NCBI GenBank assembly: GCA_031278145.1
Contig: JAITLA010000152.1
Span: 1 to 5,777, forward strand
Direction: 5' to 3'
DNA from: Eubacteriales Family XIII. Incertae Sedis bacterium
Lineage (GTDB): Bacteria; Bacillota_A; Clostridia; Peptostreptococcales; Anaerovoracaceae
DNA length: 5,777 nt
The translations under genes were made by a program, and so were the position numbers. This document shows, piece after piece, positions 354 through 4,758 of the stretch (position 1 is the first letter of the stretch; each line of letters opens with the position of its first letter). The notes under the pieces were generated by a model that saw only the letters and a program-made list of their open reading frames with translations, was not told the origin of the DNA and searched no databases.

Positions 354-367
354 GATTAACTCTTGAA
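349..367. promoter_or_regulatory. Inverted repeat spanning both divergent -35 elements (candidate operator)
   Basis: TTCAAGA (349-355) and TCTTGAA (361-367) form a perfect 7-bp inverted repeat with a 5-bp AT-rich centre (TTAAC). Most of the -35 of the leftward promoter falls in one arm and most of the -35 of the rightward promoter in the other, so one bound dimer could block both. The symmetry may instead simply reflect two similar -35 hexamers placed back to back. No regulator gene is visible nearby. Confidence 0.45.
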
Positions 368-391
368 ATGCCCGCGATAAAATAGTAATAT
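363..391 (+). promoter_or_regulatory. Sigma-A promoter for the unknown/TIR gene pair
   Basis: TTGAAA (363-368) and TAATAT (386-391) are separated by 17 bp, in a locally AT-rich stretch that stands out from the GC-rich surroundings. The predicted transcription start is near 398, about 60 nt before the preferred start codon at 460. It is arranged back to back with the exporter promoter. Confidence 0.65.
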
Positions 392-459: not shown

Positions 460-972
460 ATGCGCGTGTCATCGAGGGGCGGATCGGCGCCGATCCCCGG
501 CCTGCGCGACAAGGACGCCGCGAGCGGAGAGCTTCGCTGCCGCGTCGTGCGCAAACACATAGGCGACAGGCCGCCGGGCAAGCCCAACTGGAACAAGATT
601 CCGACAAAGAAAAAGCCGCTCCTGCACGAGAACGAATGGGAGAAGCTCATAGCGAGCTCCGCCGTCAAGGACGCCGTCCGCGGCAGAGCGATGTCGGGGC
701 AATCCGAGAGGCTGCTCGTGGATTACATCTCGCAGCGGTCCCCCGACCGCAGGCGCATGTACGAAATCCTCTTCAGCCGCTACGGCGACAAGCTTGAGGC
801 CTACAGCGCCGGGGACGGCAGCAACATGCGAAACGTGAACGGCATGTGGGAATACGACCTCACGCAGGCCGAGGCGCGCCTCGTGGAGGGCTTCATGCGC
901 ATCTACGCGCCGGCCTTCGAAGCGGCGCGCGCCGATTTTCTCACGGGCCGCCACCTGTTTCGGGAGATCTGA
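460..972 (+). CDS. Hypothetical protein upstream of the TIR gene (170 aa)
   Basis: I do not recognise this protein. It has 170 residues, no signal peptide and no membrane segment, so it should be cytoplasmic. The N-terminal third is basic and Gly/Pro-rich, with a lysine-rich patch (PGKPNWNKIPTKKKP, about residues 39-53). The rest looks mostly helical with mixed charges, including ENEWEKLIASSAVKDAVRG, SPDRRRMYEILFSRYGDKLEAY and a C-terminal MWEYDLTQAEARLVEGFMRIYAPAFEAARADF stretch. The ATG at 460 was chosen because AAAGGA (445-450) sits 9 nt upstream. An in-frame GTG at 415 with a weaker CAGGG site would add 15 residues. G/C-biased third codon positions support it as a real gene. The TIR-protein gene follows after 73 bp on the same strand with no terminator between, so the two probably share a transcript and possibly a job. 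That link is inferred from position only. Confidence 0.75.
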   Translation: MRVSSRGGSAPIPGLRDKDAASGELRCRVVRKHIGDRPPGKPNWNKIPTKKKPLLHENEWEKLIASSAVKDAVRGRAMSGQSERLLVDYISQRSPDRRRMYEILFSRYGDKLEAYSAGDGSNMRNVNGMWEYDLTQAEARLVEGFMRIYAPAFEAARADFLTGRHLFREI

Positions 973-1045: not shown

Positions 1046-1864
1046 ATGCGGTACTTATTGTATGACTTGGGAACGGTCGCCGGCGGCGAGGTGGAGGTGA
1101 CGCTCGGCTACGCGGCCAACGTCCTGATCCTGAACGAGGAAAACTACGCCCTCTACAAGGAGAACAAGCCGCCCCGCTTCATCGGGGGCTATATCGAGCG
1201 CGCCCCCTACAAGATCGCTCTGCCGGAGGGGGGCCATTGGCTCACGATCATCGACTCGGGCAGCTTCTTCTCCAAGATCCGCGCGCTCGTGCGATTTCTC
1301 CCCGCGGACGGCGGCGCGGCCGTCGTCCCGGAGCCCGTGATATGCGAACGGCTCTCCACCGAAAACGCGCCCGCGGAGAGCTTCGCCGAAGCCGTCCGGC
1401 GCTACAGGCTGCGGGCCTTCATCCTGCACTATTACAAAGACCGCGAAAACATGGCCCTGCCGCTCGCGCGGGCGCTCGAGGAGGAGGGCCTGCCCGTTTT
1501 CCACGACGATTTCATGCTGGAACCCGGGGATGATTTGGAGGACAGGATACGAACCGGCATCACCCGGTACAAGTTCGGCATCGTGATCCTCTCCCGCGCC
1601 TTCGTGCGCATCGGCTGGCAGGCCGCCGGCATCCGCTGCCTCTACGACGAATTGGCGTCCGAATACAAGGATATCCATCCGGTGTGGCACAACATCACAA
1701 AGAACGATCTGGCGAACTTCCTGCCGGTGCTGGAGCGCTTCATCCCGGAAAAACCCGGCGCCGGCGGCATCCCCGCAATCGTCCGGGACGTCGTCGGCCT
1801 GCTGTGGCCGAATCCGCCCGCCGGCTCCGATGTGAGGGGGCAGGCCGCCACCACAAGCCTTTAA
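1046..1864 (+). CDS. DUF1883 + TIR domain protein
   Basis: The protein has 272 residues. Residues 1-85 resemble DUF1883, a small beta-rich domain of unknown function: YDLGTVAGGEVEVTL, then AANVLILNEENYALYK, GGYIERAPYKIALPEGGHW and a closing IIDSG strand. A linker (about 86-120) leads to a TIR domain (about 122-238). Its visible TIR features are strand A (AFILHYYKDREN), the ALEEEGLPVFHDDFMLEPGDDL box, the FGIVILSRAFVRIGW box and the HPVWHNITKNDL segment. Many bacterial TIR domains cleave NAD+ or make cyclic ADP-ribose-type signals in anti-phage defence. In such TIRs a catalytic Glu usually lies four residues after the conserved Trp (W...EL); here W191 is followed by QAAGI, so Gly195 occupies that place. 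The domain may therefore be non-enzymatic, or use another residue such as Glu202. The start is supported by AGGAG (1033-1037) 8 nt upstream. It is probably co-transcribed with the 170-residue gene before it. The domain calls are strong; the defence role is inferred. Confidence 0.88.
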   Translation: MRYLLYDLGTVAGGEVEVTLGYAANVLILNEENYALYKENKPPRFIGGYIERAPYKIALPEGGHWLTIIDSGSFFSKIRALVRFLPADGGAAVVPEPVICERLSTENAPAESFAEAVRRYRLRAFILHYYKDRENMALPLARALEEEGLPVFHDDFMLEPGDDLEDRIRTGITRYKFGIVILSRAFVRIGWQAAGIRCLYDELASEYKDIHPVWHNITKNDLANFLPVLERFIPEKPGAGGIPAIVRDVVGLLWPNPPAGSDVRGQAATTSL

Positions 1865-1892: not shown

Positions 1893-1921
1893 TGGACAAT
1901 TGCGTACCCGTGCGGTATAAT
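1893..1921 (+). promoter_or_regulatory. Strong sigma-A promoter for the 112-aa protein and probably the SLH protein
   Basis: TGGACA (1893-1898), one mismatch from TTGACA, is followed after 17 bp by a perfect TATAAT (1916-1921). Transcription should start near 1928. This leaves an untranslated leader of about 170 nt before the ATG at 2098. The promoter begins only 29 bp after the TIR stop codon, and no terminator separates them. Confidence 0.8.
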
Positions 1922-2083: not shown

Positions 2084-2137
2084 TTGGATCTTTTGATATG
2101 GAAAGCAACGAAAAGACGAATGCCAACATTCGCATAG
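2084..2137 (+). CDS. Possible 17-codon leader peptide overlapping the next gene's start
   Basis: The best Shine-Dalgarno site of this region, GGGAGG (2072-2077), lies 6 nt before a TTG at 2084. It is 20 nt before the ATG at 2098, too far to serve that ATG well. From the TTG a short frame reads MDLLIWKATKRRMPTFA and stops at 2137, overlapping the first 40 nt of the 112-residue gene out of frame. It could couple translation of the two frames. Alternatively, the TTG is irrelevant and the weaker GGA at 2086-2088 serves the ATG. This is a speculative call. Confidence 0.25.
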   Translation: MDLLIWKATKRRMPTFA

Positions 2138-2436
2138 AACTGTATCATGACGGCTTGCTGGTCGCCGCCTTGGGCAATTACATGTCGCACGTTTCCCGAA
2201 TCGAGATCGAAAACGTGCTGTTCGCACCGCCCATCGCCGCGATCACAAAATGCAACAAGACTTTCGTGCGCGGCGTCATCGATTCACGGGAAACGAGGGT
2301 GCCCATGTTTACGGCCGAAGAGCCGATAGAAAATTCCGCCGACATCCGTTCCGCCATCGGCAATATGACGGTACGGGTCAACGTGGAGGCGGAACGCCTC
2401 AAGATGCAAAGAAGCATCCGCACCGTTCAAGGATAG
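2098..2436 (+). CDS. Hypothetical protein (112 aa) upstream of the SLH protein
   Basis: I do not recognise this protein. It has 112 residues with no signal peptide or membrane helix. Alternating hydrophobic stretches suggest a mainly beta fold (IRIELYHDGLLVAAL, RIEIENVLFAPPIAAITK, MTVRVNVEAERLKM), with an acidic loop TAEEPIENSADI in the middle. There are no catalytic motifs I can name. The ATG at 2098 is the only start that keeps the frame open, because no in-frame start exists upstream. Its own Shine-Dalgarno site is weak, with GGA 9 nt before it. Codon third positions are less G/C-biased than in the neighbouring genes, which might mean a different history. The SLH-protein gene begins 66 bp downstream on the same strand with no terminator between, so the strong promoter at 1893-1921 probably drives both. 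A link to the cell surface is only a guess from this position. Confidence 0.75.
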   Translation: MESNEKTNANIRIELYHDGLLVAALGNYMSHVSRIEIENVLFAPPIAAITKCNKTFVRGVIDSRETRVPMFTAEEPIENSADIRSAIGNMTVRVNVEAERLKMQRSIRTVQG

Positions 2437-2502: not shown

Positions 2503-4758
2503 ATGAAGATGAATTTGAGAGTATGCACCGTCGCCGCATTTCTGCTCTTGTCTGTCCTGTCCTGCGCCCTTCTGCGGGAAACGCCCGTATACGGCGCGTC
2601 CAATTTCGTGGACACGGTGTGGCACTGGGCCGACGAGGAGATTCGCAGCGCCGTGGATTACGGTTATATCAACGGATACACCGACGGCAGATTCCTGCCC
2701 GACGCGGCCATCAAGCGCTCCGAGTTCGTCAAGGTCGTGAACGCGGCCATGGGCTATTCGGAGCTCGGCAACATCGCTTTTTCGGACGTACCGTCCTACG
2801 AATGGTATTACAACGAGGTGCGCAAGGCCGCAGCCGCGGGCTACATCGCGGGCTATGGCGGCGGCGCCTGGTTCGCGCCCGACAATCCCATCACGCGCGA
2901 AGAGGTTGCGACGGTGCTCTTTCGGATATCCCCGGGCGAGAGCTCGACCAAGACGCCGAAGGGGCTCGTGGACGCGAAGGAGATAGGGGAATGGGCCGTG
3001 GCGGCCGTGAACTCCGCCTACACCAAAGGCTATCTGAGCGGCTATCCCGACGGCAACTTCTACCCCAAGCGCAACCTGACGCGCGCGGAAACCGTCAAGG
3101 TCATCAACAAGATCCTCGGCATCGATCAGGATTCGCGGGCCATCACGGAACTTGCGCTCTCGGACTACAACAACGTGCGGGCGGTCGTGAACGCCACGTC
3201 GCGGCTCAGCGGCACCCTGTACTGGGTCCTGCTCGAAAACCCCCGCACCGCCCCGAGCGCCCTGCAGATCTCGCAGGGCAAGGACGCGACCGGCGCGGCC
3301 GCACCCAAGAAGGGCAACGTGAAGGTGAAGGCCTACGAGCGGGCCTCCATCACCGCGGACGGCCTCACGGCAAACAAGCCCTATACGATGTACGCGACGG
3401 TGAAAGGGAGCGACGGCAAGCTGTCCAACATGCGGAGCCTGTACTTCAACACCGAGGACGAGGCCAACATGGGCGAGAACTGGATCAGCTCCTTCGGGGT
3501 CGGCACAATCACCGAAACCGGCGCCCTTCTGACGGTGCAGTCCACGGAAAAGGGTACCTTCTACTGGGTGCTCGTCGAGAACAGCGCGGGCAAGCCCTCG
3601 CAGACGAACATCGCCGCAGGCAACGACAAAGGCGGCGACAAGGCGCTGCAATCGGGCAATGTGCCGATTGATCGGAACAGAAGCCTGACCGTCGAGCTGA
3701 CGGGCCTCAAGGTCGGGAGCGGCTACGACGTTTACGGCTACGTCGCGAAGAACGCGGACGAGTTCTCCAAGGTCGAATCGCGCGCCTTCACGACCACCGG
3801 CGTGGGCACGCCGACCATCCGAAGCCTGAGCGCGGTCATCAACAGCGCCAACATGCTCGAGATAACGGTCAGCGTCAACGCCAAGGGGACCTTCCACTGG
3901 ATTGCCGTGGCGGAGAGCGGCAACGCCCTGCCGCCCACGCCCGAAAAGGTCAAGGCCGGCGCCGCCAACGCAAACCAGACCGTTGGCGCGAAGGGCAGCG
4001 TCCCGGGCGTGGAGAATACCTTTACGACCACCGCCGCGATCTCGATGAATACGAAATACCGCGTGTACGCCTGCCTCGAAGGCCCCTCCGGCGCGCTCTC
4101 CCCCGTTTCCTACACGGGGCTTGTGGAGAAAACGACGCAATCCGGCGCCCTGACCGGCCTGACGCTCAGCGCGGAGGGCGGGCGCTTGGTCAGCGGCTTC
4201 AGCTTTGACGTGAACGCGCGGAGCTATCCGAACATCGTCGTGACAAACGGCAGCTCCTACATCGTCGTGCGACCCGTGGCCTCCGCGAGCACGGATATCA
4301 TCGTGGACGGGAGCATCGTGGCGAGCGGCGCGACGGCACGCATCCTCCTGCCGAGCACGGCGGGCGAAACGCGCAGCTTCACCGTCGAAACATCCGAATC
4401 GGGCAAGAGCAAGCAGGTCTACACCTTCACCGTGCGCGAGAACACGCCCAAACCGGACGACGTGTACGTGTCCGGCGCGGATCCCGAAAATCCGAAGCCC
4501 TCATCGGACAAGGTCTACACGAGCTACGTGCCCGAAAACTACAAGAGCGTGAACATCTCCGTCAGCTTCGGCTCGGAATTCACCTGCGTGCTCGTGCAGG
4601 GGACCACGCGCACGACCGTGCGGAGCGGGGAGCGGCGGACCATAACCCTGAACGAGGGCGGCGACGGCACAAAGACCGATATCACCATCGAGCTGTCAGG
4701 CCCCACAAACGGCGGCGACAAAGACAGCTTCACCCTGTCCGTCGTCAAGAGGCGGTAA
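2503..4758 (+). CDS. Secreted SLH-domain cell-surface protein with FN3-like repeats and a cadherin-like domain
   Basis: The protein has 751 residues and is probably held on the cell wall. Residues 1-32 form a signal peptide: basic MKMNLR, hydrophobic core VAAFLLLSVLSCALL, likely cleavage near VYGA-S. Three SLH domains follow at about 35-84, 92-142 and 155-206. Their wall-binding motifs are seen as KRSE (71-74), TREE (131-134) and TRAE (193-196); in this family they bind pyruvylated secondary cell-wall polymer. Next come three FN3-like repeats of about 105 residues (about 214-317, 327-432 and 436-541). Each carries a G-T-(L/F)-(Y/H)-W core at residues 237, 351 and 462 and a late Y-x-(V/M)-Y-(G/A) strand. 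Residues 549-646 fit a cadherin-like beta-sandwich (LTGLTLSAEGG to YTFTVREN). The last 100 residues are a more divergent, similar beta domain. The start is supported by GGAG (2490-2493) 9 nt upstream. No enzyme domain is seen, so an S-layer, scaffold or adhesin role is inferred. Confidence 0.92.
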   Translation: MKMNLRVCTVAAFLLLSVLSCALLRETPVYGASNFVDTVWHWADEEIRSAVDYGYINGYTDGRFLPDAAIKRSEFVKVVNAAMGYSELGNIAFSDVPSYEWYYNEVRKAAAAGYIAGYGGGAWFAPDNPITREEVATVLFRISPGESSTKTPKGLVDAKEIGEWAVAAVNSAYTKGYLSGYPDGNFYPKRNLTRAETVKVINKILGIDQDSRAITELALSDYNNVRAVVNATSRLSGTLYWVLLENPRTAPSALQISQGKDATGAAAPKKGNVKVKAYERASITADGLTANKPYTMYATVKGSDGKLSNMRSLYFNTEDEANMGENWISSFGVGTITETGALLTVQSTEKGTFYWVLVENSAGKPSQTNIAAGNDKGGDKALQSGNVPIDRNRSLTVELTGLKVGSGYDVYGYVAKNADEFSKVESRAFTTTGVGTPTIRSLSAVINSANMLEITVSVNAKGTFHWIAVAESGNALPPTPEKVKAGAANANQTVGAKGSVPGVENTFTTTAAISMNTKYRVYACLEGPSGALSPVSYTGLVEKTTQSGALTGLTLSAEGGRLVSGFSFDVNARSYPNIVVTNGSSYIVVRPVASASTDIIVDGSIVASGATARILLPSTAGETRSFTVETSESGKSKQVYTFTVRENTPKPDDVYVSGADPENPKPSSDKVYTSYVPENYKSVNISVSFGSEFTCVLVQGTTRTTVRSGERRTITLNEGGDGTKTDITIELSGPTNGGDKDSFTLSVVKRR

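What the first reader, a model, noticed from the sequence alone, without database searches (positions are those of the whole stretch)
1046..1864. DUF1883-TIR protein whose TIR domain lacks the usual catalytic glutamate
The TIR boxes are clear, but the residue four after the conserved Trp191, normally the NADase Glu (W...EL), is Gly195. A TIR without this residue could be a sensor or adaptor, could use another acid such as Glu202, or could have lost activity. With an N-terminal DUF1883, which may bind an unknown ligand, it might be a sensing partner rather than a toxin. The motif and substitution are read directly; the functional meaning is inference.
Basis: partly seen in the sequence, partly recalled or inferred. 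Interest (0 to 1): 0.7.

Follow-up and report, generated by a model that had tools for sequence, protein, structure and literature searches.

The report
Clade-fixed dead TIR domain with DUF1883
A bacterial protein built like an immune NAD-cutting enzyme has lost its key cutting residue across its whole sampled lineage yet is still preserved, so it probably now works as a non-cutting signalling or scaffold part.

Summary
Window 1046-1864 encodes a 272-aa DUF1883-TIR protein with Gly195 where TIR NADases have the WxxxE glutamate (ungapped register with AbTir E208). It is not a local mutation. The position is Gly in 19 of 19 close homologues, Asp in 4 of 4 sister rows and Glu in 101 of 101 outgroup rows examined; the tree needs two changes. 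Of eight AbTir positions where mutation inhibited activity, S140, R151, E208 and R215 are replaced in all 23 Gly/Asp rows, while W204 is kept in 23 of 23. R151 and R215 also vary in some Glu-bearing viral TIRs, so Glu and the two serines carry the argument. The gene is not decaying: pairwise TIR dN/dS is 0.06-0.14. A 170-aa unannotated gene (U170) lies 23-110 bp upstream in 6 of 7 loci, but U170 also occurs without the TIR.

Best reading: a TIR pseudoenzyme, a DUF1883-regulated scaffold or adaptor that assembles but does not cleave NAD+, perhaps with U170. Its process is unknown, and Glu202 as a substitute acid is unlikely. New variant of a known kind; no assay was possible.

The parts
1046..1864 (+). 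DUF1883-TIR pseudoenzyme gene, 272 aa
   Evidence: homologues
1046..1303 (+). DUF1883 domain (residues 1-86)
   Evidence: Pfam PF08980 E 9.7e-16; PDB 2b1y Atu1913 E 2.1e-9
1406..1807 (+). TIR domain (residues about 121-254)
1424..1444 (+). box 1 / AA-loop, LHYYKDR (residues 127-133), replacing SHASEDK of outgroup proteins
1457..1459 (+). Leu138 at the place of AbTir R151
1511..1537 (+). BB loop FMLEPGDDL (residues 156-164), with F156, G161, D162 and L164 retained in the Gly clade
1616..1618 (+). Trp191, the WxxxE tryptophan, retained (AbTir W204)
1628..1630 (+). Gly195 codon GGC at the catalytic Glu position (AbTir E208)
1649..1651 (+).
460..972 (+). U170: unannotated gene upstream (170 aa from the ATG at 460; a GTG at 415 would give 185 aa), 73 bp gap, recurrent neighbour
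   Evidence: no hit at E 0.1 in Pfam, NCBIfam or PHROGs; one weak PADLOC hit, E 0.044
363..391 (+). promoter-like site before U170, TTGAAA-17-TAATAT, 9 of 12
   Evidence: consensus match only
1893..1921 (+). promoter-like site after the TIR gene, TGGACA-17-TATAAT, 11 of 12; the same pattern read by eye in L001 and L002; suggests the next gene has its own promoter
2098..2436 (+). S112: 112-aa unannotated downstream gene, probably a separate unit

Best explanation
The protein is a clade-fixed TIR pseudoenzyme. An ancestral DUF1883-TIR NADase lost its catalytic Glu (most simply Glu, then Asp, then Gly) together with other residues of the NAD pocket, but kept the TIR fold, much of the BB loop and two tryptophans. 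Most likely DUF1883 responds to a ligand or partner and the TIR domain then assembles with itself or another protein as a scaffold or adaptor, without cutting NAD+. It may be made together with U170. Shown by sequence: loss of the residues, fixation in the sampled clade, purifying selection, gene adjacency. Inferred: the enzymatic ancestor, absence of NADase activity, assembly, the DUF1883 switch, partnership with U170.
For: Position 195 is Gly 19/19, Asp 4/4 (sister rows), Glu 101/101 (outgroup rows). AbTir positions where mutation inhibited NADase (PMC11374754 Table II): S140, R151, E208 and R215 are replaced in all 23 Gly/Asp rows; D167 is D or E; W204 is kept 23/23. The S140 and S143 positions are Ser in 101/101 outgroup rows and 28/28 viral rows. 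The tree needs two changes, with Gly rows as one group at 99*. Pairwise dN/dS in the TIR domain is 0.059-0.138 over 10 pairs. Mean identity: Glu-Glu TIR 82% and DUF1883 67%; Gly-Glu TIR 36% and DUF1883 45%; Gly-Gly TIR 86% and DUF1883 82%, which I read as the TIR losing an old constraint and gaining a new one. The fold is intact: model pLDDT 86 overall, block means 85-97 over residues 121-250, with Foldseek and VIA matches to bacterial TIRs. U170 is directly upstream in 6 of 7 loci.
Against: No activity was measured. W191 and W214 are kept, which could mean a nucleotide is still bound or a different reaction is run. Replacement of R151 and R215 is not diagnostic: in 28 viral relatives that all keep Glu, the R151 position is R in only 22 and the R215 position is K or R in only 8. 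W204 and Y238 were not needed in TcpC. U170 occurs without a detected DUF1883 protein in 3 of 8 genomes with a strong U170 match, and the TIR-bearing G054 has no detected U170. The TIR-bearing genomes are MAGs or many-contig assemblies. Only the best 120 of 7949 profile hits were listed, so the outgroup sample is skewed. The Asp rows have long branches, and the tool warned about two joins.
Confidence: 0.65

Rival explanations
1. The TIR is still an enzyme that uses another acid (Glu202, Asp154/155 or Glu159), perhaps on another nucleotide.
For: Glu202 is invariant 19/19 in the Gly clade, residue 154 is D or E in 23/23, and W191 is kept.
Against: Glu202 lies where outgroup rows have K/R (101/101) and AbTir has R215, two helical turns from residue 195; the S140 and S143 positions are also replaced. 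In the Asp sister rows position 202 is L or M, so it is not an old alternative.
Confidence: 0.12
2. It is a half-site or capping subunit (a special case of the scaffold reading, so the odds overlap): it joins strands of an active TIR, offering the partner face while lacking its own catalytic face, and so completes or limits another TIR's active site.
For: TIR active sites span two protomers (PMC12847820, passages). Here the catalytic pocket is dismantled while W214, the PxW motif and BB-loop residues G161, D162 and L164 are kept. Another TIR with W+4 = Glu is present in G003, G004 and G010.
Against: No second TIR_2 match in G001, G002 or G054 (incomplete assemblies). The other TIRs are of a different kind. 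No complex could be modelled.
Confidence: 0.12
3. A decaying former defence gene with no present function.
For: Catalytic residues lost; long stem (1.79) and long branches of the Asp rows.
Against: Open frame in the 7 loci read as DNA; dN/dS 0.06-0.14 in the TIR; Gly-clade TIR 86% identical.
Confidence: 0.04
4. It still acts in phage defence as a non-catalytic sensor subunit with U170 or another effector (compatible with the scaffold reading, so the odds overlap).
For: TIR-level PADLOC matches (PDC-S66 E 2.6e-24 over residues 124-229; a ThsB model E 8.4e-12). A viral contig (L055) encodes a relative matching residues 1-253 with Glu, and phrog_9211 matches residues 1-230.
Against: Recurring neighbours are housekeeping genes rather than known defence genes. 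No effector was recognised among the window genes scanned; neighbours in the other TIR-bearing loci were compared only by BLAST among themselves, not all scanned against family libraries.
Confidence: 0.15

Closest known systems
DUF1883-TIR proteins with intact Glu (one search set; viral L055; phrog_9211)
   Same: Same two-domain architecture, aligned over nearly the whole length
   Different: They keep S, S, R, W, E and K/R in 100 or 101 of 101 rows; here S, S, R, E and K/R are replaced
Bacterial TIR NADases AbTir, PdTIR, BtTir
   Different: Catalytic Glu and three more positions whose mutation inhibits AbTir are replaced
Animal TIR adaptors MyD88 and TIRAP/MAL and endosomal TLRs
   Same: The NADase Glu position is rarely Glu, under 10% (PMC7075850, passages); MyD88 and MAL assemble into filaments (PMC9153377 and PMC11364022, passages)
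C. difficile MrpA-MrpB (PMC12393383; abstract, passages and section 12)
   Same: A DUF1883 protein (MrpB, 87 aa) that can be co-transcribed with a small protein of no known family; chromosomal, tied to cell division and motility
   Different: MrpB has no TIR; MrpA (81 aa, predicted mostly beta) does not look like U170 (170 aa, mostly helical in a low-confidence model); homology not tested
PADLOC PDC-S66 and Thoeris ThsB models
   Same: Similarity over the TIR domain
   Different: Only the TIR part of each profile is matched; no ThsA-like gene recognised in the window

Membership tests
Pfam DUF1883 (PF08980) | score over curated cut-off, full domain | tested here: met
   57.9 bits against cut-off 26, profile 1-87 of 89
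Pfam TIR_2 (PF13676) | score over curated cut-off | tested here: met
   43.4 bits against cut-off 28; fold agrees
TIR NADase (enzymatic TIR) | WxxxE catalytic glutamate | tested here: not met
   Gly195; Gly in 19 of 19 clade members
TIR NADase (enzymatic TIR) | other positions whose mutation inhibits AbTir (S140, R151, R215) | tested here: not met
   L127, L138, E202; R151 and R215 also vary in some Glu-bearing viral TIRs, so only S140 is a firm marker
TIR NADase (enzymatic TIR) | measured NAD+ cleavage | not testable with these tools
   needs purified protein
Non-catalytic TIR adaptor / pseudoenzyme | TIR fold under purifying selection without the catalytic Glu | tested here: met
Non-catalytic TIR adaptor / pseudoenzyme | homotypic or heterotypic TIR assembly | not testable with these tools
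   no complex prediction available; some BB-loop residues retained
Thoeris (ThsB) | full-length ThsB match | tested here: not met
   best ThsB model matched over profile 169-271 of 303 only
Thoeris (ThsB) | ThsA partner gene nearby | tested here: inconclusive
   none recognised among window genes scanned; whole genome not held
PDC-S66 (PADLOC) | full-length model match | tested here: not met
   profile 151-256 of 282 only
Retron TIR (NCBIfam NF042941) | score over curated cut-off | tested here: not met
   39.9 bits against cut-off 600
MrpAB-like DUF1883 pair | homology of the small partner to MrpA | not tested
   MrpA sequence not obtained; sizes and predicted folds differ

The most novel reading that the evidence does not exclude
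A bacterial immune TIR enzyme was domesticated: over two steps (Glu to Asp to Gly) a DUF1883-TIR NADase became a 'half' TIR that keeps its assembly faces and a probable adenine-side tryptophan but no catalytic pocket. It now works with the U170 protein as a resident signalling scaffold, possibly in envelope, motility or division control like the C. difficile DUF1883 protein MrpB, or as a regulator of other TIRs in the same cell.
Probability: 0.3. Interest if true: 0.65.

Novelty: new variant of a known kind. Interest (0 to 1): 0.5.

Why it matters
Animal TIR adaptors without NADase activity are well known. I found no description of a bacterial DUF1883-TIR counterpart with a traceable loss of the site. 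Here one bacterial family holds the enzyme-like form, a possible Asp intermediate and a conserved Glu-less form, a natural series for asking how a NADase becomes a scaffold and what non-catalytic bacterial TIRs do. It also warns against annotating DUF1883-TIR genes as NADases or defence genes by domain alone.

Tried and rejected
Local mutation or sequencing error: rejected by 19 of 19 Gly and GGC codons in all five Gly-clade loci read as DNA, the window included.

Pseudogene: rejected by dN/dS. Caveats: simple Nei-Gojobori counts, five sequences, synonymous sites near saturation in several pairs with L004 and infinite in 2 of 10 DUF1883 pairs and 1 of 10 linker pairs.

Glu202 as catalytic acid: judged unlikely. 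I had no model coordinates, so the distance is from ideal helix geometry.

R151 and R215 as firm markers of activity: weakened on checking, because Glu-bearing viral relatives vary there. This took my confidence in the pseudoenzyme reading from 0.68 to 0.65.

U170 as a known fold: Foldseek on a low-confidence model (pLDDT 66) gave no match at E 0.001 or better; inconclusive. U170 as an exclusive partner of the TIR: not so. U170 is also scarce in the order: 5 of 393 genomes; DUF1883 in 12 of 393.

Fold of DUF1883 alone: the TIR domain filled the structure lists, so only the sequence match to 2b1y stands. Own genome: none held. Literature on bacterial TIRs lacking the Glu: 0 papers; one search found 81 papers, 20 listed, none of which says so in its title or abstract start. 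The library is open-access only. Searches on termite origin and on the adenine tryptophan of AbTir and SARM1 returned 0.

Viral relatives: 28 of 28 keep Glu, so no viral source of the Glu-less form was seen in that one pattern-limited scan.

Full report
What is there. The window holds, left to right, the end of an aromatic-acid-exporter-like gene on the minus strand, an unannotated gene (U170, 460-972; 170 aa from the ATG I used), the DUF1883-TIR gene (1046-1864), an unannotated 112-aa gene (S112, 2098-2436), an S-layer-homology protein (2503-4758) and the start of argC (from 5209). DUF1883 and TIR_2 both pass Pfam's cut-offs in the finding's ORF. The register to AbTir is ungapped in the phmmer alignment and agrees at both ends of the structural alignment, which puts Gly195 on the catalytic Glu208.

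Is the Gly a local accident? No. The protein search gave 26 hits including the window itself. I left out P0002 (the window again, shorter) and aligned P0001 with 25 homologues. A second, profile search matched 7949 of 7999 scored candidates, of which only the best 120 are listed. From these plus two loci read from genomes I built a 124-row set. Column 195 is Gly in 19 of 19 close relatives (the fragment P0020 included), Asp in 4 of 4 sister rows (P0021, P0022, L009/G054, L010/G010), and Glu in 101 of 101 others. Two further loci, L002 and L003, also read Gly (GGC). In IMG/VR, 28 of 28 relatives have Glu. A quick maximum-likelihood tree of 67 rows (18 Gly, 4 Asp, 45 of the 101 Glu rows; P0020 left out; six trait columns dropped) needs two changes: the Glu rows lie on one side of a branch (100*) and the Gly rows on one side of another (99*). 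Codons fit a single step from Asp to Gly (GAC in L010 and L029, GGC in the Gly loci). The tool warned that the Asp rows have long branches and that two long-branch joins may be false. The direction from Glu to Asp to Gly rests on taking the Glu rows as outgroup.

How much of the active site is gone? A mutational scan of AbTir lists S140, R151, D167, V193, W204, E208, R215 and Y238 as positions whose mutation inhibits activity (PMC11374754, section 13 with Table II; its E208 row is printed 'E208E'; W204 and Y238 had no effect in TcpC). At these places the Gly clade has L (19/19), L or V (18 and 1), D or E (15 and 4), V, A or I (14, 4, 1), W (19/19), G (19/19), E (19/19) and F (19/19). The outgroup has S 101/101, R 100/101, D 101/101, V 100/101, W 101/101, E 101/101, K or R 101/101, and Y or F 101/101. 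The SHASEDK stretch has become LHYYKDR. Against over-reading: in the 28 viral relatives, all with Glu, the R151 position is R in 22 and the R215 position K or R in 8, while both serines and D167 are kept in 28 of 28. So R151 and R215 alone prove little; the Glu and the two serines carry the argument. F156, G161, D162 and L164 around the BB loop, W191, and P212-x-W214 are kept in the Gly clade. That W214 corresponds to the adenine-contacting tryptophan of the neighbouring protomer is my recollection; the SpbK paper says only that such a tryptophan exists in TIR-B of AbTir and SARM1 (PMC12847820, passages). The picture is of a dismantled catalytic pocket in a TIR that keeps its fold and part of its assembly surfaces.

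Is it still selected? Yes. Over ten pairs of five genomes, pairwise dN/dS is 0.059-0.138 in the TIR domain, 0.050-0.194 in DUF1883 (8 pairs with finite dS), 0.195-0.609 in the linker (9 finite pairs) and 0.115-0.284 in U170. Among Glu-bearing proteins the TIR is the more conserved domain (82% against 67%). Between Gly and Glu proteins it is the less conserved one (36% against 45%). Within the Gly clade it is again about as conserved as DUF1883 (86% against 82%). I read this as loss of the old catalytic constraint followed by a new one.

Surroundings. U170 lies directly upstream on the same strand in 6 of 7 loci (window, L001-L004, L010; gaps 73, 87, 23, 110, 87 and 57 bp); the exception is G054. 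A promoter-like site precedes U170 (9 of 12 matches), and a stronger one (11 of 12) follows the TIR gene, with the same pattern in L001 and L002, so U170-TIR may be its own transcription unit (inference). Among 197 genomes of the same family, DUF1883 occurs in 6 and U170 in 10, two of them weak. Five of the six DUF1883 genomes have U170; three genomes with strong U170 have no detected DUF1883. In the order sample DUF1883 is in 12 of 393 and U170 in 5 of 393. The wider neighbourhood is only partly shared. The exporter gene is upstream in the window, L002, L003 and L004. MotA and MotB lie near the TIR in L003 and L029 (MotB also in L002) and near the TIR-less U170 loci L024 and L025. Alanine racemase follows the TIR in L029. 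S112 is in L001, L002 and L010. The S-layer protein is in L001, L002 and L025, with a weak match in L024. argC was found in none of the loci compared (gene names are from L024 copies). My simple ORF picker chose wrong-strand frames in places, so that map is rough. Overall this looks more like a resident chromosomal locus than a mobile defence island (inference). The named relatives are MAGs called Clostridiales Family XIII bacterium; that they come from termite guts is my recollection and was not confirmed.

What it does. The best-supported statement is negative and structural: a TIR domain that very probably cannot cleave NAD+ by the known mechanism but is kept. Assembly is the other known job of TIRs, and active TIR assemblies share a head-to-tail strand (PMC11364022, passages). 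[quoted passage not shown] Hence the working model: DUF1883 senses, the TIR assembles, U170 or another protein carries the signal. In C. difficile a TIR-less DUF1883 protein, MrpB, acts with a small partner in cell division and motility (same preprint). That is a precedent for a non-defence DUF1883 pair and only a lead here.

Compared with what is known. TIRs without the Glu are not new as such: the Glu is in over 70% of all TIRs and rare in MyD88, TIRAP and endosomal TLRs (PMC7075850, passages). Not every TIR has the Glu or detectable activity (PMC9153377, passages), and one microbiome survey required the Glu before calling a TIR active (PMC9092222, passages). What I found no description of is a bacterial DUF1883-TIR family in which loss of the site can be traced and is fixed. 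I therefore call it a new variant of a known kind.

Noticed in passing
460-972: U170 family: 31 proteins found (window included), no named domain; weak, possibly real relatives of about 200 aa in G091 and G193 sharing an SPDR motif.
   Followed up: partly
2098-2436: S112: conserved 112-aa orphan after the TIR gene in L001, L002 and L010, with a strong promoter-like site ahead of it in the window, L001 and L002.
   Followed up: partly
L003, L029, L024, L025: MotA/MotB genes lie near the locus in all four; a GGDEF-HDOD-EAL protein lies beyond them in L024 and L025 only. Whether U170 or the TIR protein is tied to motility is untested.
   Followed up: partly
L036, L037, L041: A second kind of TIR (WVMREVE motif, Glu at W+4) recurs in G004, G010 and G003.
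   Followed up: partly
L046, L047, L049, L050: Short DUF1883 open frames of 87-99 aa in 4.2-4.3 Mb genomes of the same order, about the size of C. difficile MrpB.
   Followed up: no
L020: The U170 match in G123 contains one in-frame TAG in the model frame.
   Followed up: no
L055: A relative of the whole DUF1883-TIR protein with intact Glu in a viral contig; phrog_9211 also matches residues 1-230.
   Followed up: partly
L029:9166-11072: In G054 the Asp-type TIR gene (stop at 9933) overlaps the first possible start of the alanine racemase frame (9921), suggesting coupling there.
   Followed up: no
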